A program made the position numbers and the translations under genes. The notes under the pieces were generated by a model. The model was not told the DNA's origin and did not search any database. It saw only the letters and a program-made list of their open reading frames with translations. A stretch of DNA of 36,954 nucleotides from a virus: positions 1 to 36,954 of the IMG/VR virus record IMGVR_UViG_3300043313_000373; one strand, written 5' to 3'. Positions 2,340 through 32,462 of the stretch are shown here, piece after piece; positions within the stretch are counted from its first letter, which is position 1, and each line of letters opens with the position of its first letter.

Positions 2340-2656
2340 CAGCGGATCCCCCTCAGTTGTGACTCGATGCGCCCTGTGGTCAGATCGGCCGGACGCCACA
2401 GGCCCACATCGGCCCCGGCAGCGAACAGCCGGTCCAGCCAGAGTTGCTGCGGCAGGGTCGGCTTGCCCTTGGCCGACTTCAACTCGCGGAAGAGCACTCC
2501 CCTGCGCCCAGCAATAACCAGGTCGGGGAAGCCCTCGTCGCCCTCGATGGCGGTACGCCAGCCGTGCTCGGTGCGGGCCGGGCGGTCGTGATGGACCAGC
2601 AGCCCGAGCAGCTTGCACAGATCCATCACGGCCCCCTTCAGGTCGTCCTCGGTCAC
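2339..2656 (-). CDS. VRR-NUC domain nuclease
   Basis: This 105-residue protein is a stand-alone VRR-NUC domain, a PD-(D/E)XK nuclease family that includes phage Holliday-junction-resolvase-like enzymes. Visible core residues are D45 in GFPDLVI and E58-x-K60 in FRELKSAKG, followed by the LPQQLWLDRLFAAGADVGLW helix and strand typical of the family. Start GTG 2656-2654 overlaps the RecT stop by 4 nt (GTGA). Placement beside RecT- and RecE-like genes supports a role in recombination or in resolving replication intermediates. Confidence 0.88.
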   Translation of the reverse strand: MTEDDLKGAVMDLCKLLGLLVHHDRPARTEHGWRTAIEGDEGFPDLVIAGRRGVLFRELKSAKGKPTLPQQLWLDRLFAAGADVGLWRPADLTTGRIESQLRGIR

Positions 2657-3549
2657 GGTGCAACTTCGGCGGTCGGCGGCCAGTCGTCCCGCGACGACGG
2701 GGGCTCAGTCGTGGCGTCGTCCTCGTCGAACGGCAACGGCTGATCCACCAGCGGCCCCTCGATGAACGGCGCGCGGTACGGGGTGGTGTCCTTCGCGGCG
2801 GCCCGGCGCTTGCGGGGCTGGTCGGCGTACGGGGTGGTCAGCTCCTCGATGGTGACCGCGCGCTCCTGCGGCGTGGCCCCGTCGCGCTCGTCGTGCTCGA
2901 TCTCCTCGACCGCGTACGGCATGGCGAAGAGCACGTCAGAGGCGATCAGCCGGGCCAGCTCGCTAGTGGCTCGGGCGATCAGCATCGTCTGCGGCTGCAG
3001 CTTCCATGGCCCCGGACCCTTGCCCGCCTTTTCGGCCCTCTCGCCCCGCGCGGGCAGGCCCATCTGAATGGCCCGCTCCATCGTCCACTCCACCGTCACC
3101 GGCTCGTCGTACGCACCGCTCCCCGGACCCACGGCCCAACCGCCGCCCACATACCGCTGCCCCTCCATAACCACGCGCGTGGGACTGGCCTCAACCAGGG
3201 TGAGCTTGTGCCCCCGCGACTGGAGCAGGCCCCGCATCGCGTGCGCCCGCAGCGCGGGCGTGCCGTAGATGATGTCGATGGAGCGCAGTGCGGCCATCGG
3301 CTGCATGCCCAGTTCGTGCCCGGCCAGGATCGCGGCGGTGATGTCGTGCGGCTTGCCCTGCATCGTGGCGGGCACGAACTGGGTCTTGGACAGCGCGATG
3401 GCGATCTGGTGCGCCTCGCGCGCGGCGTAGGCCCACCGCACCAGATCGCCATCGGCCCCCGCCGGGATGGCGCGCGGCACGGGCATCATCTCTGCCTCGT
3501 CGAGCTTGGCCAGCCGGGTATCCGCGCTGACCGGAACGTCGTGTCCCAC
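2653..3549 (-). CDS. recT: RecT-family single-strand annealing protein
   Basis: This 298-residue protein matches the RecT family: a helical N-terminal segment, then FVPATMQGKPHDITAAILAG, then GMQPMAALRSIDIIYGTPAL, the conserved core of RecT/RedB-type annealing proteins. It would coat and anneal single strands made by the nuclease encoded directly upstream. The C-terminal 70 residues are acidic and proline-rich, often an SSB- or partner-interaction tail. Start GTG 3549 is preceded by GGAGGT and lies 1 nt after the nuclease stop, so the pair is coupled. Confidence 0.88.
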   Translation of the reverse strand: MGHDVPVSADTRLAKLDEAEMMPVPRAIPAGADGDLVRWAYAAREAHQIAIALSKTQFVPATMQGKPHDITAAILAGHELGMQPMAALRSIDIIYGTPALRAHAMRGLLQSRGHKLTLVEASPTRVVMEGQRYVGGGWAVGPGSGAYDEPVTVEWTMERAIQMGLPARGERAEKAGKGPGPWKLQPQTMLIARATSELARLIASDVLFAMPYAVEEIEHDERDGATPQERAVTIEELTTPYADQPRKRRAAAKDTTPYRAPFIEGPLVDQPLPFDEDDATTEPPSSRDDWPPTAEVAP

Positions 3550-3550
3550 T

Positions 3551-4414
3551 TCAGACCTCCATATAGCGATGGCGCGTCACGGCCCAGCGGGGCAGTGACA
3601 CGGTGCCGATCCTGTCGGCGTTGTAGCCCGGCCAGCGCCCGCTCTCAACGCAGTCCCGGTATATCTGGCGGGCCAGCGTGTTGCGCTCGGCTCCGATGGC
3701 CACGCCCTCCTCGTCGATCTGCACCAGGTTCACCAGGTAGGGCTCGGTCTTCTCCTGGAACACGAAGACCACGCGCGGGATCGCGGATTCGGGGTGGAGC
3801 GCCGCGACGCCATCGGCGTACCAGGCGGCCTGCTGGTGGTAGCCGTACCTGTCCACCGCCTTGCTGATCGACTCGTCGTCGGCGGCGACACACGTCTTGT
3901 AGTCGGCAATGACGGACCGCCCGTTCGACGGCCGCCACCAGTCCAGCATCGCCTTGCAGCGCACGCCGGTGTCCAGGTCATCCCACACCAACACCTGCTC
4001 GACGAAGCCGGACTCCCCGAACAGCCCCGGCACCTGGGTGTGCAGTTCGGCGGCCATCTCCTGCACCTGGTAGGCCTCGGCCTCCAGCACCGGAATCCTG
4101 CCGTCGGCGTAGGCGCGGTTGCGGGCCAGCTTCGCCTCTTTGGTGCGCCAGGAACCGGCCTCCACGATGCTGAACTCAGCACCCCGGCCGAGCACCACGC
4201 GGTGCGCGGCGTGACCCAGGTCGAACTCCCTGCGGCGTGGCTCGGGATGGTCGCGCCACCACCGGAACTTGGCGGGGCAGCTCGGCGGCAGCAGCAGCTT
4301 GGCGCCCGACTGGGTCAGCGCGTGACGCTCGGCGTGGTAGACCTCCGGTGCCACGTCGTACACGCCGGGCGTGTCCAACTCAGCACCGATCGCGGTGCCT
4401 AGTTCGACACTCAT
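3551..4414 (-). CDS. RecE/YqaJ-like PD-(D/E)XK exonuclease
   Basis: This 287-residue protein has the features of phage exonucleases that pair with RecT: YHAERHALTQSGAKLLLPP at the N terminus, GHAAHRVVLG (about 68-76), CKAMLDWW with D158, VIADYKTC with D171 and K173 (the PD-(D/E)XK core), then YHQQAAWY (QxxxY box). The predicted job is 5'-to-3' degradation of one strand at double-strand ends. Start ATG 4414 overlaps the previous stop by 4 nt. Immediate linkage to RecT strongly supports the call. Confidence 0.87.
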   Translation of the reverse strand: MSVELGTAIGAELDTPGVYDVAPEVYHAERHALTQSGAKLLLPPSCPAKFRWWRDHPEPRRREFDLGHAAHRVVLGRGAEFSIVEAGSWRTKEAKLARNRAYADGRIPVLEAEAYQVQEMAAELHTQVPGLFGESGFVEQVLVWDDLDTGVRCKAMLDWWRPSNGRSVIADYKTCVAADDESISKAVDRYGYHQQAAWYADGVAALHPESAIPRVVFVFQEKTEPYLVNLVQIDEEGVAIGAERNTLARQIYRDCVESGRWPGYNADRIGTVSLPRWAVTRHRYMEV

Positions 4415-4683
4415 GCCGCCTGCCGCCCCCGCTGACGTGCGCGTGGACCGCACTCCTTGGCGTGCAGCCGCCGCAGGCCGGTCGCCCCGAAGCGCTCCCG
4501 CGTGACCAGCTCGACATACGTCGGCATGGCCCCGTCGGTCACCGGCGGGTACACGCGGCACGTGCCGTCTGTGCTGGGCTCAGCATTGAGCAGTGCCGGG
4601 CGCAGCGTCCGCCGATGCCTGGCCTTCAGTACCGGCGCGTGGCAGACCGGGCACGCGTCCTGTGTCGAGTCGAGCAGCTTCAC
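4411..4683 (-). CDS. Small Cys-containing protein
   Basis: This 90-residue protein starts at GTG 4683-4681 (MKLLDSTQDACPVCHAPV). CPVC near residue 11 and later single cysteines (TCRVYP, KECGPR) could make a zinc site. The C terminus is Arg-rich. It overlaps both neighbours by 4 nt and is translated between the SLOG gene and the exonuclease. Function unknown. Confidence 0.6.
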   Translation of the reverse strand: MKLLDSTQDACPVCHAPVLKARHRRTLRPALLNAEPSTDGTCRVYPPVTDGAMPTYVELVTRERFGATGLRRLHAKECGPRARQRGRQAA

Positions 4684-23367: not shown

Positions 23368-24840
23368 CTAGTACCCGGCGGTCGGGATGACGCCCGTGCC
23401 GCTGATGACCGAAATTGCCTCGGGGCGACGGTTGCCCATGAACGCGAAGTACTCGAAGACCTGGACGCGCACCTGAAGGGTGCCGCTCAGGACCTCCTGG
23501 AGCACCCGCGTGCGAACCGGACCCTCCCAGAGGAAGAGGTCACTCCACCGCGCGGTGATGATCCGGGTCTCGTTGGTGCCGCCGCCAAGGTTCGACGGGA
23601 TGTTGCCGTCGGTGTAGGCGGGGGCGCCGTAGGCGAACATGCCCGCCGCACCCTCGGCCGCGAGGCCGCTCTGGGTGGCCGCCGGGTTGTAGGCCACGCC
23701 CGGCAGCGTGATCAGCGGCCGGTTGGTCGTGTCGAGCTGGCCGGTTGCCCAGTACCACATCGACGGAATGAGGAGCACGCCCGTCGCGGGCAGCTTGCGG
23801 TTCTTCTCGATCAGCGAGGCCGACTGCACGAGCGGGACGTACAGCTCAGGCAGGGTCGGGCTGGCATCGGTGTAGGTCACGGCGTTGATGCCCGGAACGT
23901 TGAGGATGCCGAGCACCTGACCGGCAGCGTTGGACCCGTTGACCACCTGAATGTCGAGCTTGCTGTTCAGGTCAGCCAGCAGGTCGGCGTAGATGATGTC
24001 GTCGAAGTTGATCGGCGACTGGTCGAGAAGCTGCAGCGCGATGTCCTGCTGTCCGGCGATCGTCTTGACGTTCGCCTGGACCGACGTGTCGGTCAGGTCG
24101 GTGGACTGCACCGCAGCCGCGTCAGCGGTCTGCACGGCGGCAGCCGTACCGGTGCTGACCTTCGGCAGGTTGATGGAGTCGGTGCCCGGCGGCAGATCGA
24201 AGTGCTGGCACAGGTTGGCCGCGGTCCGGCCGAAGCGCGGCAGGTCAACGTACTGGTCGACCATCCAGAGCGGGGGAACGAAGTAACCGCCCTGGCCGTC
24301 CGTCCGGTTCGGGTTGACACGCGACTCGAAGACGGAACCGTCGGGCAGCGCCCGCTGCTCGTCGCGCGCGCGACGCTCGCGGTTGGCCAGCCGTGCGGGC
24401 AGCTCGACCCGCAGCTCGGCCGCGTGGCGGGCAAGCCGCTCGGAGGCCGCATTGGCACCGCCGTCGCCGTCACCGTGGCCGGTGCCAGCGCGGGCCAGGT
24501 CCAGGAAGTATGAGTGTCCGGAGCCCCGGCCGTAGACCATCGGCTCGTTGGTGACGACCGCGCCGCCGACCGCGCGCGTCTCGGTCGTGGCACCGTCGCC
24601 GGACACCGCGTTCTCGGCCGGAAGGGCTGCGATGGTGGCCCGGCGGGCCTCGTCGCGGGCCACGGCCAGGTACAGCCCGGTGGCTTCCCGTCCGGCGGCA
24701 GCGTCGGCCATCTCGCCGCGCTCGGTGGTGAGCGCGTCCCAGCGGGCCTGCTGCTGCTCGTCCAGCGGGTTGTTGCCCGCTGCGTCGTTGATACTGCGCA
24801 GCTCGGTCGCAATAGCGGCCAGGCGCACACGTGGATTCAT
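23368..24840 (-). CDS. Major capsid protein (HK97 fold)
   Basis: The 490-residue protein has the HK97 layout: a helical N-terminal delta/scaffold region (about 1-60, LDEQQQARWDALTTERGEM), a linker, then the shell domain with GGYFVPPLWMVDQYVDLPRF, LPKVSTGTAAAVQ, LLDQSPINFDDIIYADLLA, ITLPGVAYNP and a C-terminal ARWSDLFLWEGPVRTRVLQE with FAFMGNRRPEAI. ATG 24840 has AGGAG upstream. It directly follows the prohead protease, which would remove the N-terminal region during maturation. The stretch 60-155 is longer than average. Confidence 0.92.
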   Translation of the reverse strand: MNPRVRLAAIATELRSINDAAGNNPLDEQQQARWDALTTERGEMADAAAGREATGLYLAVARDEARRATIAALPAENAVSGDGATTETRAVGGAVVTNEPMVYGRGSGHSYFLDLARAGTGHGDGDGGANAASERLARHAAELRVELPARLANRERRARDEQRALPDGSVFESRVNPNRTDGQGGYFVPPLWMVDQYVDLPRFGRTAANLCQHFDLPPGTDSINLPKVSTGTAAAVQTADAAAVQSTDLTDTSVQANVKTIAGQQDIALQLLDQSPINFDDIIYADLLADLNSKLDIQVVNGSNAAGQVLGILNVPGINAVTYTDASPTLPELYVPLVQSASLIEKNRKLPATGVLLIPSMWYWATGQLDTTNRPLITLPGVAYNPAATQSGLAAEGAAGMFAYGAPAYTDGNIPSNLGGGTNETRIITARWSDLFLWEGPVRTRVLQEVLSGTLQVRVQVFEYFAFMGNRRPEAISVISGTGVIPTAGY

Positions 24841-24853
24841 TGGAAGGACTCCT

Positions 24854-25537
24854 CTAAGGGAAGACGGAGAGAGCGCGCTCACGCGCGGCTCTGGTCAATC
24901 CCGAGGTGTCCAGTTCAACGGCCCCGGCGGACGGGGTGCCCGCAGGGGCGGCCCCGTCACTGGAATTGCGCAAGTAGTCAACGAGATCATAGAGCAGTCG
25001 CCGCCGCTCGTCATCGTCCAGGCCCATCATCATCGAGCGCACACTGACGCTGGTGGCCGTGTAGACCGGGTGGACGACCGGCCCCAGCTCGTACAGCTCG
25101 ACCTCCTTGACGCTGCGCAGGTCGACCTCAGTGCCGCGCCGGGTCCAGGTGTCGTTGTTGACCCGCATCTTGAAGCTCATGCCGCGCAGCGCCTTGCCCT
25201 CGATGGCCTGACGGATCGGCTCGACCACCGGGTTGTCGAACAGCCGCGCCCGCACATACAGGCCGTGCTCGTCAGGGTGGACGTCCTCGAACGCGCCGAT
25301 GGGCACAGTGCCGGTGCGCGGGTCGTTGCCGTGGTCGAACTGGAGGACGGGCATCCGCTCGGCGAGCGTCTTGGTGAAAGCGGAGCGCTCAATCATCTCG
25401 TCGAACGCCGGTTCCCGGCCCATCGCGGGCACGCGGGCATGCCGGTTGAACACCGCCGCGTAGCCCTCCATGGTGTGTCCGTCGGACACCTCGGGCTCGA
25501 AGCTGTAGGCGCGCACGCAGAACCGGGACGGCTTCAC
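24854..25537 (-). CDS. Prohead (capsid maturation) protease, U35/HK97 gp4 family
   Basis: A 227-residue serine protease: EGYAAVFNRHARVP near the N terminus, VLQFDHGNDPRTGTV with catalytic His69, and ALRGMSFKM with catalytic Ser121, then YELGPVVHPVYTATSV, the family's conserved tail strand. I chose GTG 25537 because GGAGG lies 7 nt upstream; a TTG at 25549 is poorer. It processes the capsid protein encoded next in the operon. Confidence 0.9.
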   Translation of the reverse strand: MKPSRFCVRAYSFEPEVSDGHTMEGYAAVFNRHARVPAMGREPAFDEMIERSAFTKTLAERMPVLQFDHGNDPRTGTVPIGAFEDVHPDEHGLYVRARLFDNPVVEPIRQAIEGKALRGMSFKMRVNNDTWTRRGTEVDLRSVKEVELYELGPVVHPVYTATSVSVRSMMMGLDDDERRRLLYDLVDYLRNSSDGAAPAGTPSAGAVELDTSGLTRAARERALSVFP

Positions 25538-25552
25538 GGCATCCTCCAAACG

Positions 25553-25801
25553 CTAGAAGTCATCGGGCGTGTCTTCGGGCACGTCGATGGGATCGGACCA
25601 ACCGGTGCGGGGTAGTGCCTCGAAGCCCATGATCAGCGCCTGGATGTCGGGGGCCAGGTCGTCCCAGGTGGCGTTGTCCATGCCTGCGGCCATATACGCC
25701 TCGCGCACCTGGGCAGCCTCGTCGGGGTCCGGGTCGTGCGACCCGAGCGCGTCGGAGAGTCGGTAGTGCAGCTCGGCCTGCGGCGAGAGTGGCTGGGTCA
25801 T
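25553..25801 (-). CDS. Hypothetical protein between portal fusion and protease
   Basis: An 82-residue acidic helical protein from ATG 25801, which shares one base with the portal stop (TAATG). It begins MTQPLSPQAELHYRLSDALG and has DNATWDDLAPDIQALIMGFE. It might be a chaperone, scaffold or partner (even an antagonist) of the enzyme domains at the end of the portal protein; that idea rests on adjacency alone. Confidence 0.65.
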   Translation of the reverse strand: MTQPLSPQAELHYRLSDALGSHDPDPDEAAQVREAYMAAGMDNATWDDLAPDIQALIMGFEALPRTGWSDPIDVPEDTPDDF

Positions 25802-28800
25802 TAGTCGGCCTCCTGAATGATGAGCACGGAACGGTTCACCCAGTTGTATGCGGGCTTGCCGGGGCGGGCGATGTGCACCGCACCCCCGCCGGGGCTGTGG
25901 TGGTGGCTGGAGATCTCGATCCCGTCAAGACCCTCCGCAGCGGCGTAGCGGCCAGGGTCGCGCAGCGTGCCGACGCCGCCGGTGTCGCCCTGCCGGGAGC
26001 CGCTGAAGTGCTTCGACGAGGAAGAGCCGGTGGCACGGGCGCGCTTGTGAACGCTGTCAAAGCCTTCGATCTTGGCTGACTTCGGGATCAGGATGCGCAC
26101 CACACTGTTCTTAGAGCCGTCGCTGTACATCCTGGCCACGCTCTGCTGGGTGGTCAGGTAGTAGCCGTTGCCGAAGATGCCGGTGCCGTAGTAGGCCGGG
26201 CCGCTGCGCATGTCCTCGTGAATGGAGGCAGCCGACTTGGTCGGGGTGCCCCAGCCGCCCGCGCTCTGGACGCCACGCCACGCCTCGATGTAGTCGCCGG
26301 TAGCCAGCAGCCGGTCAAACTCACTGCGCTTGACCACGGTGGGCGTCTCGTCATAGCCCTGCATCGCGCCGATGGCGGCCAACCGCTCGTCGGCGGTCTT
26401 GCCCCGGTAGCTGCGCCGGGTAGCGGACACGTCGGAGCGGAGCTTGTCCTGGGCACCGTTGTCGCTAACGAGATTCCTGCCCTTCGACGGCTTGTGCGGG
26501 GTGGCGGGGCGCGGCGGGGCCGACGGTGCGCCGTTGCCCGCCGTGGTCGAGGGGAAGATTGACATGACGTTGGTCTGCAGCTTGCCGCCCGCCACCGGGT
26601 GATGCAGCTTGCCCGCCTTGTCCAGGGCGTCGATCTCGGCCCGCGTCATCCACTTCGCGTCGGAGGTCTCCATGCGCGCGTTGTGGGTCTGAAGGTGCGG
26701 GGTCATCATGGTCGGCACCGTGGCGGCCACCGAGTGGTACGTCCACGGCGTGGGGTTGCCCTTGGCGTCCACCGCGTTGATGTCGGAGCGCTCCAGCACG
26801 TGATAGCCGTGCACCTGCGCACCGGCGAAGTCGGCGTCGGTCCAGCCCAGCTCTTCGGCCACCTCGCGGGTTGCGCCCTGGTAGAAGTTCTCCTTGGACT
26901 CGAACGCACCGCCGGGATAGCTCCACACCCCGGGGTCAGAGATGGCCGGGCCGCGCTGGGTCATCAGGAACCGCTCGGTGCCGCTGGCGTCAACGTGGCG
27001 CAGCAGCAGTCCGCCCGAGCCGTACTTGCCCCACACGCGCGACTTGTGGTCGGGGGTGTAGAGCCACTCATCCCCGCGCTGGCCGCTATTGGTGGCCTGC
27101 ACCAGCAGACCGCCCTGCGGCGCGGGCAGGATCGTCTGGTGCGGGTTGGCCGGTCCGGCGATCTGGGCCGACGGGGTCGGCATGGTACCGAGCGGCGTGC
27201 CCGCCGGGGTGAACCGGTCGATGAGCTTCTTGGCCCGGTCGCGGTCCTTGCGGCCCGGCGCGAACTGGGCGGTGGCGTGCAGCCCGGCCAGGATCTGCTG
27301 CTGATCCCGCGCCGTCATAGCGTCGTAGTCGGCCTTGTGCAGGTGGCCGATATGGGTGTTGCGCTCGGCGTCGCTCATCATCGAGTTGGACGATGCGGCC
27401 AGCGCGTTGCCCTGCCGGGTGCCGCGGTTGGCGCGACCCGACACCGGCGTGATCGGGGTCTGCATGTGCGGGTTGGGATTGGCCGGTGCCCCGCCGGGCA
27501 GCGTGCCCACGTTGGTAAGCAGCCGGGCCAACGGGTCATGCTTGTCCATGATGTCGGCCGCGCGCTGCACCAGCGCCGGATCAGCGCTGGTGGCATACAC
27601 GCCGGTCAGGTAGTCCATCAACGTCTTGCGCTCGGGCGAGGGCAGATTGTTGAAGTCGTACGGGTCGATCGCGTCGATCGCGTCGAGCTTCTCGGCGTCG
27701 GTAGCCACGGTGGGCAGCAGCGCCTGCGCATAGCGCGCCTGCGCGAACGGTGCCCTCGACCCCGGCGCCAAGTGAATGGCGTTGCTGGGCACCGTCGCGC
27801 GGTGGTTCGGGTCGAAGCGGTCCAGCAGGTCACGCGCCCGCAGACGCTGCGCCGGGTCGACGTGGTAGCCGTAGATGTCGTCGAGCACATCCATCACGAC
27901 GTGCTGGGAGCTTCCGTCCATCGCGTCGAAGTCGGCACGACTCAGCTTCTCCAGCTCGTCCAGCTTCACCGCGCCGGACAGTGCCCCGTTGGCAGCCGCC
28001 AATGCATCACGGATCCGCGCCTGCTGCGCCGGGTCGTACACGCCGGGAACACCCGGAGCCGTGGGCAGCTTCGCCGCAGGCGCTGCGGTCGGGTATCCGG
28101 CGAGCTGGGCATGCACGCGGTCGGCCTGCGACTGGTGTGATCCCCACTGATGGCTGGAAAGGTGCGCCAACATCCAGTCCTGATCGGCCACGGATAGCGA
28201 CGCCCAGTCGCTGGGGGTCATCTGGCCAGCAGAGGCAAGCTTGGAGGGATCGGTGACGTTCGCGTCGCGCATCAGGAACAGCGCATTGGAAGCGCGCACG
28301 GTTCGGTTCGGCGACGAGATGAACACCGGCATGGCAATAGGCATGGCCGTGCCCACCGGAGCTGGCGCGGCAGTGCCGGGCGTGACCTGCACCAGGCGGT
28401 CATAGACGTCCTGGGCGCGCTGGCTGTCCTGACGGCGCAGCGCGTGCGCGTTGATGTCGTTGAGCTTGTCCAGGATCTTGTTCTGATCCGGGCCGGACAG
28501 GGTGGCGAAGTCGGTGTCGGTGAGCCGGTCGACCTTGTCCATGGTGTCGGTGATCGGGTTGGGCTTGCCGACCGCGTCCAGCGCGTCGGCGATCCGCTTG
28601 GCACGCGTCGAGCGCGGCCCGGGCACGCCCGGCGAGCGCGGCAGGCGCGGGGTGGGCACATGCACCGGCTGCGGCACGTGTACGGCCGGGGTCATGCCCG
28701 CGCCCACGTGGTGCAACAGCGCCTGCCGGATGTAGTCGTGGCTGGCCCCGCGCGGCAGGGTGACACCCATCCGGCGGGCCACCCGGCGCAGCCGGTCACG

Positions 28801-30480
28801 GTTGTAGCTGGCGAACGGGTCCGGGCCGCCGCCGGTGAGATGGATGTTGATCGCGTCGCGCAGCAGCGCACCGGCAGAGATGAACTTGCCGTCCGGCCCG
28901 CGCGGGTGAAGCGACGGGTCCCAGGAGCGGCCGGTCTCCCCGTAGAGGTCGACACCGTTGGACTCAGCGATCATCTGCAGCGCATCAACCAGAGCCTGCT
29001 CGTCATCGTCCAGCTCGGCATCGTCTAGGTCGGCGAAGTCGTCGGGCTCGTCGTCGTCCGGTTCCATCCGGTGCCGTCCGGGAAGCGCCCGGACAGCGCG
29101 CACGTCGGCGTCGGCGTGCAGCATTCCGCGAGCGGGGGCGTCGGGACCGCCGCCCGGCCCGCCGCTACCGCTGGAGGACTGGAGCTGCACCGACACCCAG
29201 TCGGGGTCCTTGACCAGCAGCGTCATGTCGTAGTTGTTCTCGACCGCCGCGATAGCCGACTCCCGCAGGAAGCCGCCGGTGGACAGGCTGACGATGGTGG
29301 ACGCCTTCGCCGAGCCGATCTCGGCCATATCCTTGGCGTCCTCGCGCAGGTACGGGATGTCGAAGTCGTCATACCAGAGCTGCTCGTCGGCGGGCTCGGT
29401 GATGACGGAGGCCAGCGACCCGCAGGCCGAGCGCCACAGCGGGCGCATCGTGCCGTCGACGAAGTTGCGCTTGGCGGCGTTGTAGTTGCCTGCGTTCAGC
29501 GATGAGCCCTGCATGCCCTCGGACAGGCCGACGATCACCGGGGAGATGCGCAGCACGGCCGCAATGCGGGTCTCACCGGCACCGGTGATGGCCCGGTAGT
29601 CGATCTGCTGCATGGTGGCCGCCGACAGCGACATGTCCGCACCGCCGCCGATGTACAGCGGCTTGTAGGCGTTCTCCGGACCCTCGTGCTCGGCCTTGGC
29701 CGCCGCCACGAACTCGCGGAACTTCTCGATACTCAGGTCCGGCCCGAGCCGGAAGACCGGCCCAAGCGTCGCACCGTTGCGGAAGAATCCGAGCTTGTGC
29801 TGGGTGGCGGCCTGATCGGCCATGATCTCGGCGACAATCGGGGTCAGGCAGGACATGCCCCGGTAGTTGGCATCCGGGTCGGGGATCGGCGACCAGTGCG
29901 CCAGCTCCTCGGGCAGGTAGAACTTCGGCGAGCCACGGTCGATGCCGCCGGGCCAGTAGGCGTATCCGGCCACGTCGGACTGCACGGCCACGTCCGGCGG
30001 GGCGGTCATGATGATCTGCACCCAGTCCGGGCGCAGTCGCCGCAGCCGCTCGCCTTCGCGCGCGATGTAGGCGTTACCGGACAGGTCAACGTCACCGAGC
30101 ATGCGGGCGAGCAGCTCGCCGGACGTGCCGTTAGGCCACGGCCTCTCCAGCGGGCGCAGCTCGCGGCCACCGTGCAGCGCCTGCGGGCGGCCGTTGAGGA
30201 AGCCGCGGAACTGGAAGCGCGCCTCGCTGAACACGAGCTGGCGGGCCACCATGCAGGCGAAGACGACACCGTCGGACTTGAACAGCGACTGCACGTAGCT
30301 GGAGAAGTTGTTCTCGATCGTCTCACGGTCGCGGTCGCGGCCGATGCCCCCGCCGCTGTAGTAGCTCTTGAACGCGGCGAACGCGGCTGGGGAGAAGTCG
30401 TTGAAGTAGTCGTTACCCAGGCGGGAGCGACTCTCGGTGGCGGCCGAACGACCGAGCAGGCTTCGCCACAGCTTCGCCAT
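25801..30480 (-). CDS. Portal protein fused to linker repeats, NUDIX and ADP-ribosyltransferase-like domains
   Basis: One uninterrupted 1,559-residue frame. Residues 1-430 are an HK97/SPP1-type portal (VVFACMVARQLVFSEARFQF, DVDLSGNAYIAREGERLRRL, IAAVLRISPVIVGLSEGMQ). HPRGPDGKFI near 523 is a motif often seen where enzymes are attached to phage head proteins. Residues about 625-1091 hold five diverged 65-75-residue repeats. About 1132-1300 is NUDIX, with the box GGAFESKENFYQ...REVAEELGW near 1189-1212 (Gx5Ex7REVxEExGW). About 1337-1559 looks like an ADP-ribosyltransferase: EAWRGVQS (Arg near 1398), YYGTGIFGNGYYLTT and IPKSAKIEG. The portal's ring implies about 12 copies of each enzyme per virion. 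Domain limits are approximate. Confidence 0.88.
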   Translation of the reverse strand: MAKLWRSLLGRSAATESRSRLGNDYFNDFSPAAFAAFKSYYSGGGIGRDRDRETIENNFSSYVQSLFKSDGVVFACMVARQLVFSEARFQFRGFLNGRPQALHGGRELRPLERPWPNGTSGELLARMLGDVDLSGNAYIAREGERLRRLRPDWVQIIMTAPPDVAVQSDVAGYAYWPGGIDRGSPKFYLPEELAHWSPIPDPDANYRGMSCLTPIVAEIMADQAATQHKLGFFRNGATLGPVFRLGPDLSIEKFREFVAAAKAEHEGPENAYKPLYIGGGADMSLSAATMQQIDYRAITGAGETRIAAVLRISPVIVGLSEGMQGSSLNAGNYNAAKRNFVDGTMRPLWRSACGSLASVITEPADEQLWYDDFDIPYLREDAKDMAEIGSAKASTIVSLSTGGFLRESAIAAVENNYDMTLLVKDPDWVSVQLQSSSGSGGPGGGPDAPARGMLHADADVRAVRALPGRHRMEPDDDEPDDFADLDDAELDDDEQALVDALQMIAESNGVDLYGETGRSWDPSLHPRGPDGKFISAGALLRDAINIHLTGGGPDPFASYNRDRLRRVARRMGVTLPRGASHDYIRQALLHHVGAGMTPAVHVPQPVHVPTPRLPRSPGVPGPRSTRAKRIADALDAVGKPNPITDTMDKVDRLTDTDFATLSGPDQNKILDKLNDINAHALRRQDSQRAQDVYDRLVQVTPGTAAPAPVGTAMPIAMPVFISSPNRTVRASNALFLMRDANVTDPSKLASAGQMTPSDWASLSVADQDWMLAHLSSHQWGSHQSQADRVHAQLAGYPTAAPAAKLPTAPGVPGVYDPAQQARIRDALAAANGALSGAVKLDELEKLSRADFDAMDGSSQHVVMDVLDDIYGYHVDPAQRLRARDLLDRFDPNHRATVPSNAIHLAPGSRAPFAQARYAQALLPTVATDAEKLDAIDAIDPYDFNNLPSPERKTLMDYLTGVYATSADPALVQRAADIMDKHDPLARLLTNVGTLPGGAPANPNPHMQTPITPVSGRANRGTRQGNALAASSNSMMSDAERNTHIGHLHKADYDAMTARDQQQILAGLHATAQFAPGRKDRDRAKKLIDRFTPAGTPLGTMPTPSAQIAGPANPHQTILPAPQGGLLVQATNSGQRGDEWLYTPDHKSRVWGKYGSGGLLLRHVDASGTERFLMTQRGPAISDPGVWSYPGGAFESKENFYQGATREVAEELGWTDADFAGAQVHGYHVLERSDINAVDAKGNPTPWTYHSVAATVPTMMTPHLQTHNARMETSDAKWMTRAEIDALDKAGKLHHPVAGGKLQTNVMSIFPSTTAGNGAPSAPPRPATPHKPSKGRNLVSDNGAQDKLRSDVSATRRSYRGKTADERLAAIGAMQGYDETPTVVKRSEFDRLLATGDYIEAWRGVQSAGGWGTPTKSAASIHEDMRSGPAYYGTGIFGNGYYLTTQQSVARMYSDGSKNSVVRILIPKSAKIEGFDSVHKRARATGSSSSKHFSGSRQGDTGGVGTLRDPGRYAAAEGLDGIEISSHHHSPGGGAVHIARPGKPAYNWVNRSVLIIQEAD
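27205..28606 (-). repeat. Five diverged protein repeats in the portal linker
   Basis: Repeat units lie at residues about 625-700, 727-795, 817-893, 912-983 and 1021-1091. Shared pattern: helix, 'l..l...Df..l...dq..il..L..i', then 'A..llDrf.P'. Examples: DFATLSGPDQNKILDKL, DWASLSVADQDWMLAHL, DFDAMDGSSQHVVMDVL, DFNNLPSPERKTLMDYL, DYDAMTARDQQQILAGL. Recognised only at protein level. Confidence 0.75.
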
Positions 30481-30634
30481 CCGGTGCTCCCTTTACCTCG
30501 TCCGTGAATGCCACACCCACCGCCAGCAGCACGCCACCGATGATCAAGCCCCAGCCGCCGAGCAGCCAGGTCAGTCCGCCGGTCAGCACGCCCAGCGCGA
30601 TGCCGAGCACCAGCAACGCCTCGCGCCTGGTCAT
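30413..30634 (-). CDS. Small membrane protein between terminase and portal
   Basis: A 73-residue protein (ATG 30634, ATGA overlap with the terminase stop) with two hydrophobic helices (EALLVLGIALGVLTGGLTWLL and GLIIGGVLLAVGVAF) and a basic tail. Its last 68 nt overlap the portal start in another frame. Its coupled start supports it being real; the role of a membrane protein in the packaging gene block is unknown. Confidence 0.6.
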   Translation of the reverse strand: MTRREALLVLGIALGVLTGGLTWLLGGWGLIIGGVLLAVGVAFTDEVKGAPDGEAVAKPARSFGRHRESLPPG

Positions 30635-32133
30635 CCGCGCATGATCCAGGCACCGACCGGCTCGGGCGGGCGGGTCACGAACCCCCACACCGCCTGCGTG
30701 GCCGTAGCCACCGGGGCCAGGTTGCCATCAGCCATGATCACATCCCAGGTGGTGCCTTCGCGGCCCAACGAGCGGGTCACCGCACATTTCATCGCGTCGT
30801 CCAATCGCTGATCACTGCGATGCCACAACCGCCAGGCGGGCACGTCGCCGGTGCGGGTCAGCGCGTCGTACACCATTCCGTAGGCCGCCCCGGCCTCGGG
30901 CGTGTTCATCGGGGTGACCCGCAGATCCAGCTTGGCTTTCTTCAACGCCTCGTCCACCTCGATGATCATGCTGGCCCCGGCACCCGACCGGTCGATCACC
31001 AACCGGCACGGCTTCCAGCGCCTCACAAGCTCCACCGCCCGAGCAGGCACCCAGCCGGTGCGCGGCCCCAGCTCGATGATCGTCATGTGCAGGTCCCCGT
31101 CGGCGCGCTGCCCGGCCGCCGCAATACACGTGCTCTCCCGGTCGGGCCGTACGTAGATCGCGAAGCTGACCGGGTCCAGCGCCGTTGACTCGTCGTCGGT
31201 GCTGGCCAGCCAGTCGGCCTCGCTGACGACCTGCCAGTCGGCACCGGCGGCCACCGGCCAGATGCAAAGGATCTCACGCGCGAAGCCTGCATTGGACATC
31301 GACTGCCGCAGTCCGTCCAGCTTCTCGGCCGTCGGCGCGTTGGGCCGGGGCATCCCCAGCGCCGGATTGGCCTGCGCCCGCGCCTGCGGATCGTCGAGCG
31401 CCCTTTGGATCTGCTCCGCGCCCTCGGCCGCCGCCGACCACTCCAGGTAGCACAGCGTCGGGTCGGTGCCTTTCATGCCGCGCTTGCGCATCGTGGTCAG
31501 CGGCACGCCGGTCTCGGTGTCCAATACCGGTGAAGACGTGTACCAGAGCTGTGGATTGGGGCGGGCGAGCAGCGTCGGCATGAGCGCCTCGGTCTGGAAC
31601 TCGTCCAGCTCGTACGCCTCGTCGAGCACCACCAGGTCACCGGACAGGCCCCGGCCGGATCCCTTCGTGCGCGCCTTGAAGATCAGCCGTGCGCCGTTGC
31701 GCAGCTCGATCATCGCGCTGCCCGTCGGCGTGGAAAAGCCACCGCTCTGGCCCGGCTTCATCTGGCGCTGCAGGTCCGGGGTGTTCTCGATCAGGCCCTT
31801 GAGCCGCCGGAAGTGCTCCAGCGACGTGCTGAACAGGTGCGACGTGTGAATGATCAGCTTCTCGCCACCGAGGAACAGCCCGAACAGCTCGCGGGCCTCC
31901 AGAACGGACCCCTTGCCGTTCTGGCGGGGCACGATCAGCCCGACCTCGAACGCACTCCAGCGCCCATTGGGCCGCTCGCCGAGCGAATACTCCAGGCACA
32001 GTCGCTGCCACGGGTCCAGCAGCAGCCCCGCCGACTCGGCCAGCTCGTAAGCCTCCTGGCCCGAGGAGCTGACGTAGTCGGGGACGCTTGAGATGCGCGG
32101 GGTCTGCGAGCCGATCAGCACGGCCGTGCTCAT
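30631..32133 (-). CDS. terL: Terminase large subunit
   Basis: The 500-residue protein has an N-terminal ATPase domain with Walker A VPRQNGKGS (69-76), Walker B LVVLDEA (167-173), and the coupling motif LWYTSSP (196-202), then a C-terminal nuclease domain with acidic residues in VRPDRES (D331), LVIDRSGAG (D381) and LDDAMK. It cuts and pumps DNA into the prohead through the portal encoded next. ATG 32133 overlaps the small-subunit stop (ATGA). Confidence 0.93.
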   Translation of the reverse strand: MSTAVLIGSQTPRISSVPDYVSSSGQEAYELAESAGLLLDPWQRLCLEYSLGERPNGRWSAFEVGLIVPRQNGKGSVLEARELFGLFLGGEKLIIHTSHLFSTSLEHFRRLKGLIENTPDLQRQMKPGQSGGFSTPTGSAMIELRNGARLIFKARTKGSGRGLSGDLVVLDEAYELDEFQTEALMPTLLARPNPQLWYTSSPVLDTETGVPLTTMRKRGMKGTDPTLCYLEWSAAAEGAEQIQRALDDPQARAQANPALGMPRPNAPTAEKLDGLRQSMSNAGFAREILCIWPVAAGADWQVVSEADWLASTDDESTALDPVSFAIYVRPDRESTCIAAAGQRADGDLHMTIIELGPRTGWVPARAVELVRRWKPCRLVIDRSGAGASMIIEVDEALKKAKLDLRVTPMNTPEAGAAYGMVYDALTRTGDVPAWRLWHRSDQRLDDAMKCAVTRSLGREGTTWDVIMADGNLAPVATATQAVWGFVTRPPEPVGAWIMRG

Positions 32134-32462
32134 GCGGACGCAATAGTGACCAGGGCAAGCCGTCGCGCGCGCTTGGCGGCGATCTGCTCGCTCGGCGAGA
32201 CGCGCTTTTCGTCGGGCAGGGCGTCGATGAGCACGAGCATGACGCGCAGCTCCTTGATCACTGCGATCAGGGTCCGCCCGTCGCCCAGGCCGCAGACGCA
32301 GATGCACTCGCTCTTGTGCTGCGCCCAGCGCGTGTCGTCGGCCTCCTCGGCCAGCCTGTCGCGCATCGCCACGAGCGTTTCGCGATAGTCCCCGCGCTGC
32401 ACGATCTCGGCCAGCGAGGGCGCTACGTCCTCATCCGAAGAGTGCAAGTTGGACGATTCCAC
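32130..32462 (-). CDS. Terminase small subunit-like protein
   Basis: This 110-residue protein has a helical build (LAEIVQRGDYRETLVAMRDR, then RTLIAVIKELRVMLVLIDAL and a basic C terminus), like actinophage small terminases. GTG 32462 was chosen for the strong GGAGGGGG upstream. It overlaps the end of the HNH gene by 32 nt and the start of terL by 4 nt. Its role would be recognition of the packaging site. No HTH is obvious, so the call rests mainly on position and type. Confidence 0.7.
   Translation of the reverse strand: MESSNLHSSDEDVAPSLAEIVQRGDYRETLVAMRDRLAEEADDTRWAQHKSECICVCGLGDGRTLIAVIKELRVMLVLIDALPDEKRVSPSEQIAAKRARRLALVTIASA

What the first reader, a model, noticed from the sequence alone, without database searches (positions are those of the whole stretch)
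25801..30480. Portal protein fused to NUDIX and ADP-ribosyltransferase domains
One open frame joins a full portal domain, an extended repeat linker, a NUDIX hydrolase with an intact box and an ADP-ribosyltransferase-like domain. Portal rings usually have 12 subunits, so the particle would carry about a dozen copies of each enzyme at the DNA entry vertex, suited to entering the cell first. ART plus NUDIX suggests making and removing, or supplying and clearing, ADP-ribose or NAD-linked marks, as the T4 Alt/NudE pair does with separate proteins. Toxins fused to MuF head proteins are known; a portal carrying both enzymes seems unusual.
Basis: partly seen in the sequence, partly recalled or inferred. 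Interest (0 to 1): 0.88.

Follow-up and report, generated by a model that had tools for sequence, protein, structure and literature searches.

The report
Phage portal carrying NUDIX and ART-fold
An uncultured bacterial virus has fused its DNA-gate (portal) protein to a NUDIX enzyme and a domain folded like ADP-ribosyltransferases, nearly always followed by a tiny acidic partner gene, which suggests that enzymes are packed inside the particle at the DNA exit and kept in check until infection; this is a new arrangement of a strategy already proposed for other phages.

Summary
Window 25801-30480 (-) is one 1559-aa frame: a PF04860 portal, an HPRGPDGKF/SAP-like connector, five ~100-aa repeats, a NUDIX domain with an intact box, and a C-terminal domain whose confident model (pLDDT 88) matches the ADP-ribosyltransferase (ART) superfamily. 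It is not a sequencing artefact: contig L093 has the same fusion with a portal only 41% identical, and Mu-type (L118, L123) and portal-MuF (L117) genes carry related modules; most relatives (~25) have it as a stand-alone gene. Found here: a 77-82-aa acidic ORF overlaps or abuts the end of the ART in 34 of 36 distinct loci and is absent from 123 loci without the ART, a candidate inhibitor. The ART keeps motif-1 Arg and G-x-G-x-Y but lacks the canonical motif-3 Glu, so ART activity is unproven. Most likely the chain is packed inside the head, released by the adjacent S78 protease and delivered with DNA to act on NAD/ADP-ribose chemistry. NUDIX and ART fusions to head proteins including portal are already described (PMC9503650), so this is a new variant of a known kind.

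The parts
29179..30480 (-). portal core (aa 1-434); PF04860 at aa 108-388
   Evidence: Pfam E 5.7e-26, PHROG portal E 1.9e-26; 49% identical to portal of Rhodococcus phage Jflix2 and about 42% to Gordonia Nymphadoravirus portals, which have only short tails
28942..29178 (-). Gly/Pro-rich and acidic linker (aa 435-513)
   Evidence: sequence and composition; aa 440-560 has pI 4.1
28684..28941 (-). connector: WDPSLHPRGPDGKF motif plus SAP-like helical segment (aa 514-599)
   Evidence: same module in L093, L095, L097, L117, L118 (twice), L123, L146, L167; motif 1 in window vs 0.1 expected by shuffling. 'SAP-like' is by eye
27196..28608 (-). five imperfect repeats of about 100 aa (aa 625-1095)
   Evidence: pattern 5 observed vs 0.008 shuffled; similar repeats in relatives
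26551..27108 (-). NUDIX domain (aa 1125-1310) with complete box
   Evidence: PF00293 E 1e-10; structural matches RenU Z 10.4, NrtR-ADP-ribose Z 8.7, NadM ADPRase Z 8.4; box residues invariant in relatives
25804..26490 (-). ART-superfamily-fold domain (aa 1331-1559): R1402, E1422, R1425, G1437-N-G-Y-Y1441, D1519
   Evidence: model pLDDT 87.9; fold matches; conservation in 37 sequences
25553..25801 (-). 82-aa acidic ORF (pI 4.1) whose ATG overlaps the portal-effector stop codon by one base; candidate inhibitor/immunity partner
   Evidence: 34/36 ART loci, 0/123 loci without ART; scan with this protein family alone: 24/24 loci have ART upstream
24854..25549 (-). S78 prohead protease, candidate releasing enzyme
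   Evidence: PF04586 E 1.2e-25
23368..24882 (-). major capsid protein (context)
   Evidence: PF05065 E 3e-12
30631..32307 (-). terminase large subunit (context; the start listed is mechanical)
   Evidence: PHROG 9 E 3.9e-58

Best explanation
This is a portal-anchored, head-internal effector. The portal part assembles the ring; its C-terminus, which in known portals (crown/barrel) points into the capsid, carries a connector, a repeat linker, a NUDIX hydrolase and an ART-fold domain into the lumen. The S78 prohead protease encoded next door probably cuts the linker during maturation, freeing NUDIX-ART to leave with the DNA. In the new host the ART-fold part would consume NAD or ADP-ribosylate a host target and the NUDIX part would cleave ADP-ribose/NAD-type molecules. 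The small acidic protein made from the overlapping ORF binds and silences the ART-fold domain in the producing cell. Shown: gene structure, domains, recurrence, partner linkage. Inferred: luminal position, cleavage, injection, substrates, inhibition.
For: Intact frame and domains; same fusion in L093, and related fusions with Mu-type portals L123 and L118 and portal-MuF L117, so the module is repeatedly put on the head's DNA gate; elsewhere stand-alone, in L008 between MuF and protease. ART fold: the 50 PDB rows shown are ART-superfamily chains headed by a cyanophage A4 pre-ejectosome chain (Z 6.8, rmsd 4.5, 132 aligned). NUDIX matches include ADP-ribose binders. NUDIX is also paired with other ART-type domains: DUF3626-like in L024 and R-S-E-type in L167. 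Partner ORF linkage 34/36 vs 0/123. T4 precedent: portal C-terminal fusions assemble, and Alt, an ART, is cleaved by the prohead protease (PMC9026906).
Against: The canonical motif-3 Glu is replaced by A/S/N/Q/G in the family, so the ART part could be inactive or act differently. Z values (5-7) are modest. No protease site, virion proteomics or activity is known; the portal ring itself is not ejected. The window contig is an uncultured record and its host is unknown. The partner could be a chaperone or head factor rather than an inhibitor.
Confidence: 0.5

Rival explanations
1. Anti-defence cargo: the NUDIX is the working part and clears host ADP-ribose-derived or NAD-derived immune signals; the ART-fold domain is a non-catalytic NAD/ADP-ribose binder that guides or regulates it.
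For: NUDIX box fully conserved, ART Glu lost; phage Nudix domains proposed to counter ADPr signals (PMC9503650).
Against: R, Y and a helix Glu/Asp of the ART-fold domain are invariant or nearly so in 37 sequences, which argues for function at that site; L118 and L052 carry the ART-fold domain without NUDIX; mono-ARTs without the Glu are known (own knowledge).
Confidence: 0.25
2. Polymorphic-toxin-like system: the ART-fold domain is a toxin against the infected cell or competitors and the 82-aa ORF is its immunity protein.
For: Exchangeable C-terminal domains and a strictly linked small acidic downstream gene are hallmarks of such systems; MuF-borne polymorphic toxins are known (PMC5576092).
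Against: No evidence of toxicity; host reprogramming would serve a lytic phage as well as killing; no copies found in one scan of genome contigs, though that scan needs exact peptide patterns.
Confidence: 0.3
3. Structural role: the extension is an internal core or scaffold on the portal and the enzyme folds are relics.
For: Long repeat linkers times about 12 copies would form a large core, as ejection-protein cores do (own knowledge).
Against: Closest cultured portals work without any extension; NUDIX box and ART-fold residues stay conserved; relatives encode it as a separate gene.
Confidence: 0.1
4. Assembly or frameshift artefact joining two genes.
For: Most relatives have separate genes.
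Against: Uniform coding signal; second fused contig with 71% ART but only 41% portal identity; the two are sisters in the ART tree (97/90).
Confidence: 0.02

Closest known systems
Nudix domains fused to MuF, portal or capsid-processing peptidase (Iyer et al. 2022, PMC9503650)
   Same: NUDIX on a portal, proposed to be packaged and injected; ARTs on head/portal proteins also mentioned
   Different: the passages read do not name a portal carrying both NUDIX and ART, nor the connector, repeats or the small partner
T4 Alt (head-packaged ART) with NudE
   Same: ART and NUDIX functions in one phage, Alt packaged and cleaved by prohead protease
   Different: separate proteins; Alt is a canonical ART (own knowledge), here the motif-3 Glu is missing
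MuF polymorphic toxins of temperate phages (PMC5576092)
   Same: enzyme domain on a head protein, possible immunity gene downstream
   Different: no MuF domain in the window protein; the carrier is the portal
Polyvalent proteins (PMC5512222)
   Same: multidomain virion-linked effectors, incl. portal fusions with PBECR, 2H, InPase
   Different: this NUDIX + ART-fold pair with fixed small partner is not described in the passages read
Mycobacterium phage Tierra gp9 (annotated capsid maturation protease and ADP-ribosyltransferase)
   Same: ART-type domain on a head-maturation protein; similar to the C-terminus of L024
   Different: different ART-type family, protease rather than portal as carrier

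Membership tests
Phage portal protein (PF04860) | profile match above curated cutoff | tested here: met
   91.9 bits vs 39.1
Phage portal protein (PF04860) | position between terminase and protease/capsid | tested here: met
   same order in Bunnybear; in Jflix2 the next gene is a fused capsid-protease
Phage portal protein (PF04860) | forms the ring in particles | not testable with these tools
   needs virions
Nudix hydrolase | PF00293 above cutoff | tested here: met
   42.2 bits vs 21.1
Nudix hydrolase | box GX5EX7REUXEEXGU | tested here: met
   G1191...W1213 complete (last hydrophobic is W); catalytic residues invariant in relatives
Nudix hydrolase | substrate and activity | not testable with these tools
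   needs enzyme assay
ADP-ribosyltransferase superfamily (fold) | ART fold | tested here: met
   pLDDT 87.9 model; PDB rows shown are ART-superfamily chains, Z 5.0-6.8; BFVD matches include a named PolyVal ART. Z is below 8, so this rests on the consistency of the list
ADP-ribosyltransferase superfamily (fold) | motif 1 Arg/His and motif 2 G-x-G-x-Y | tested here: met
   R 37/37, G-x-G-x-Y 37/37; equivalence to the known motifs is by sequence order and eye
Canonical R-S-E or H-Y-E ART | motif-3 catalytic Glu | tested here: not met
   no Glu at the column that matches it by eye, A in window; only the distant L052 has Glu there. No structural superposition of residues could be run
MuF polymorphic toxin | MuF domain (PF04233) | tested here: not met
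   no match in the window protein at E<=0.1; present in L117 and L008
MuF polymorphic toxin | cognate immunity protein that neutralises the toxin | not testable with these tools
   only strict linkage of an acidic ORF
Polyvalent phage effector | several effector domains in one virion-associated chain | tested here: inconclusive
   domains met; virion association only inferred from fusion to portal

The most novel reading that the evidence does not exclude
The portal is used as a polymorphic-effector carrier: a shared HPRG/SAP-like connector docks exchangeable NUDIX-plus-ART cassettes onto unrelated portals (PF04860, Mu-type, portal-MuF), and the Glu-less ART family comes with its own small inhibitor, giving a dedicated effector-inhibitor system at the DNA gate.
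Probability: 0.25. Interest if true: 0.8.

Novelty: new variant of a known kind. Interest (0 to 1): 0.56.

Why it matters
It would give a genetically simple case in which dose and position of packaged NAD/ADP-ribose enzymes in the virion are fixed by the portal ring, so that their release, ejection and function become directly testable. The strictly linked small acidic protein is a concrete, easily tested candidate ART inhibitor, and the shared connector may be a cargo tag for phage heads.

Tried and rejected
Frameshift/assembly artefact: rejected by coding signal and by L093. Internal translation start that would make a free effector: none with a >=5-base SD in codons 400-1344. Hidden MuF domain in the window linker: no Pfam hit. 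Canonical R-S-E ART: not supported, Glu missing. Close relatives in cultured phages: none for the linker, the L118 ART or the L025 tail, only distant NUDIX and weak ART-region hits (Burkholderia jumbo phages; Gordonia GodonK/Phendrix E 7e-3). Genome-contig scan with NUDIX-ART: none. Frame errors were repeated correctly.

Full report
WHAT IS THERE. Window 25801-30480 on the minus strand is one open frame of 1559 aa. Third-position GC is 0.79-0.95 in every 100-codon block and the codon log-likelihood is clearly positive in this frame throughout. It starts at an ATG behind a purine-rich stretch, and no internal start with a good SD lies in codons 400-1344. Gene order on the minus strand is terminase (30631-32307), a small membrane-type ORF, this gene, an 82-aa acidic ORF, an S78 prohead protease and the major capsid protein.

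DOMAINS. Portal PF04860 at aa 108-388, E 6e-26; NUDIX PF00293 at aa 1169-1289, E 1e-10. The NUDIX box is complete. A WDPSLHPRGPDGKF motif with a SAP-like segment (aa 514-599; likeness by eye) and five repeats of about 100 aa (5 seen, 0.008 expected in shuffles) join the two. The last 229 aa match no Pfam or PHROG family. A 24-sequence AlphaFold model of this part has pLDDT 87.9 and pTM 0.86. The PDB rows shown by VIA-align are ART-superfamily chains (Z 5.0-6.8): a cyanophage A4 pre-ejectosome chain first, whose own annotation I could not read, then cholix, exotoxin A, diphtheria toxin, ParT, tankyrase, PARP14, RES and MbcT. Foldseek's own E-values in PDB are weak (best 5e-3), but in BFVD 13 matches pass 1e-3, with a named PolyVal ART and a MuF fusion of Microbacterium phage Schubert. 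A profile of the family finds only tankyrase in PDB sequences, at E about 1: not significant, but at the G-x-G-x-Y motif. For NUDIX the best structural matches are RenU (Z 10.4), NrtR with ADP-ribose (8.7) and NadM ADPRase (8.4).

ACTIVE SITES. In 37 aligned ART-fold sequences the motif-1 Arg (R1402), a second Arg (R1425), G-x-G-x-Y (Y1441) and D1519 are invariant, and a helix Glu (E1422) is Glu in 35 and Asp in 2. The column that matches the canonical third-motif Glu, by eye, holds A, S, N, Q or G. The distant stand-alone relative in L052 appears to keep it (EEWVILNRS, by eye). So the fold is supported and the activity is not shown. Mono-ARTs without that Glu are known (own knowledge), so the loss does not prove inactivity.

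RELATIVES. The closest cultured portals (Rhodococcus Jflix2, 49%; Gordonia Bunnybear, 43%) are 470-500 aa and lack the extension. No cultured phage record has a close relative of the linker or of the NUDIX-ART part. IMG/VR scans gave 38 distinct ART-fold ORFs. Architectures (with Pfam): PF04860 portal + connector + repeats + NUDIX + ART in window and L093; Mu-type portal PF06074 + connector + NUDIX + ART in L123, and without NUDIX in L118; portal-like + MuF + connector + NUDIX + ART in L117; about 25 long proteins in which no portal is fused (the complete ones 1550-1970 aa, many with an LHPGPCKGWK motif near the N-terminus, several cut by contig ends so that their N-termini are unseen), in L008 lying between MuF and protease; and L095, a separate gene overlapping the end of a portal gene and with an extra R-S-E-type ART (PF03496 E 6e-13). 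In the ART tree window and L093 are sisters (97/90) and L095 is next (100/91): the fusion probably arose from adjacent genes, and the fusions to Mu-type portals look separate. Window and L093 portals share only 41% while their ART parts share 71%.

PORTAL TAILS IN GENERAL. Among 80 portal relatives most end within 80 aa of the core, but several carry other tails: L024 portal + NUDIX (E 5e-12) + DUF3626-like domain, similar to a part annotated as ADP-ribosyltransferase in Mycobacterium phage Tierra gp9; L084 portal + HPRG motif + DUF3626-like; L025/L027 portal + R-S-E-type ART (PF03496 E 7e-5, just under the curated cutoff); L052 portal + HPRG motif + unknown, followed by more HPRG-tagged proteins, one with the ART fold. 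The HPRG motif occurs 6 times in L052 against 0.0 by shuffling. NUDIX-ART pairs and ART-type tails on portals therefore recur.

PARTNER GENE. A 77-82-aa acidic ORF (pI 4.1-4.5 in the seven first examined) overlaps or abuts the ART stop codon. It is present in 34 of 36 distinct ART loci with enough downstream sequence and in none of 123 loci without the ART; that control set is mixed, including about 75 portal relatives. A scan with the small protein family alone returned 24 loci, all with the ART upstream, several of them on contigs that the ART scan had not returned. L118 has a shorter likely relative. It has no Pfam or PHROG match.

MECHANISM. Portal C-termini form the crown/barrel facing the capsid interior (own knowledge; crown named C-terminal in PMC12810830), so the extension should lie in the lumen. 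T4 portal C-terminal fusions (gp20-GFP, gp20-Hoc) were assembled into particles, and Alt, an ART present at 40 copies, is cleaved by the prohead protease (PMC9026906). Hence the most likely route is luminal display, cleavage by the adjacent S78 protease and exit with the DNA. The small acidic partner most likely keeps the ART-fold domain silent in the producing cell. All of these steps are inference.

COMPARISON AND NOVELTY. Iyer et al. [quoted passage not shown] portal fusions with PBECR, 2H and InPase domains are described too (PMC5512222). The window is therefore a new variant of a known kind. What I did not find described: both enzymes on one portal, this Glu-less ART family, the HPRG/SAP-like connector and the linked acidic partner. 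My literature view is limited to open-licence papers.

Noticed in passing
L095 2481-5954: Portal gene interrupted by two large in-frame insertions with intein-like ends.
   Followed up: no
L052 10-6351: Run of consecutive ORFs after the portal, each with a W...HPR.P.GKF motif (6 found, 0.0 expected by shuffling): possible head-cargo tag.
   Followed up: partly
L024 2957-8263: Portal + NUDIX + DUF3626-like domain: NUDIX on a portal paired with an unrelated ART-type domain.
   Followed up: partly
L025 2616-4628, L027, L014 7001-8998: Portal fused to a short R-S-E-type ART (RGG, STS, EDE); L014 seems truncated or shifted at the end.
   Followed up: partly
L118 2907-7604: Mu-type portal with two connectors and a kinase-like stretch between them.
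   Followed up: no
L174-L187, L189, L193, L204: Proteins of up to 4800 aa with NUDIX and sometimes ART-type domains, polyvalent-protein-like.
   Followed up: no
window 2653-4561: RecT-like annealing protein and exonuclease VIII-like pair.
   Followed up: no
window 9683-9756: tRNA-Met (CAT).
   Followed up: no
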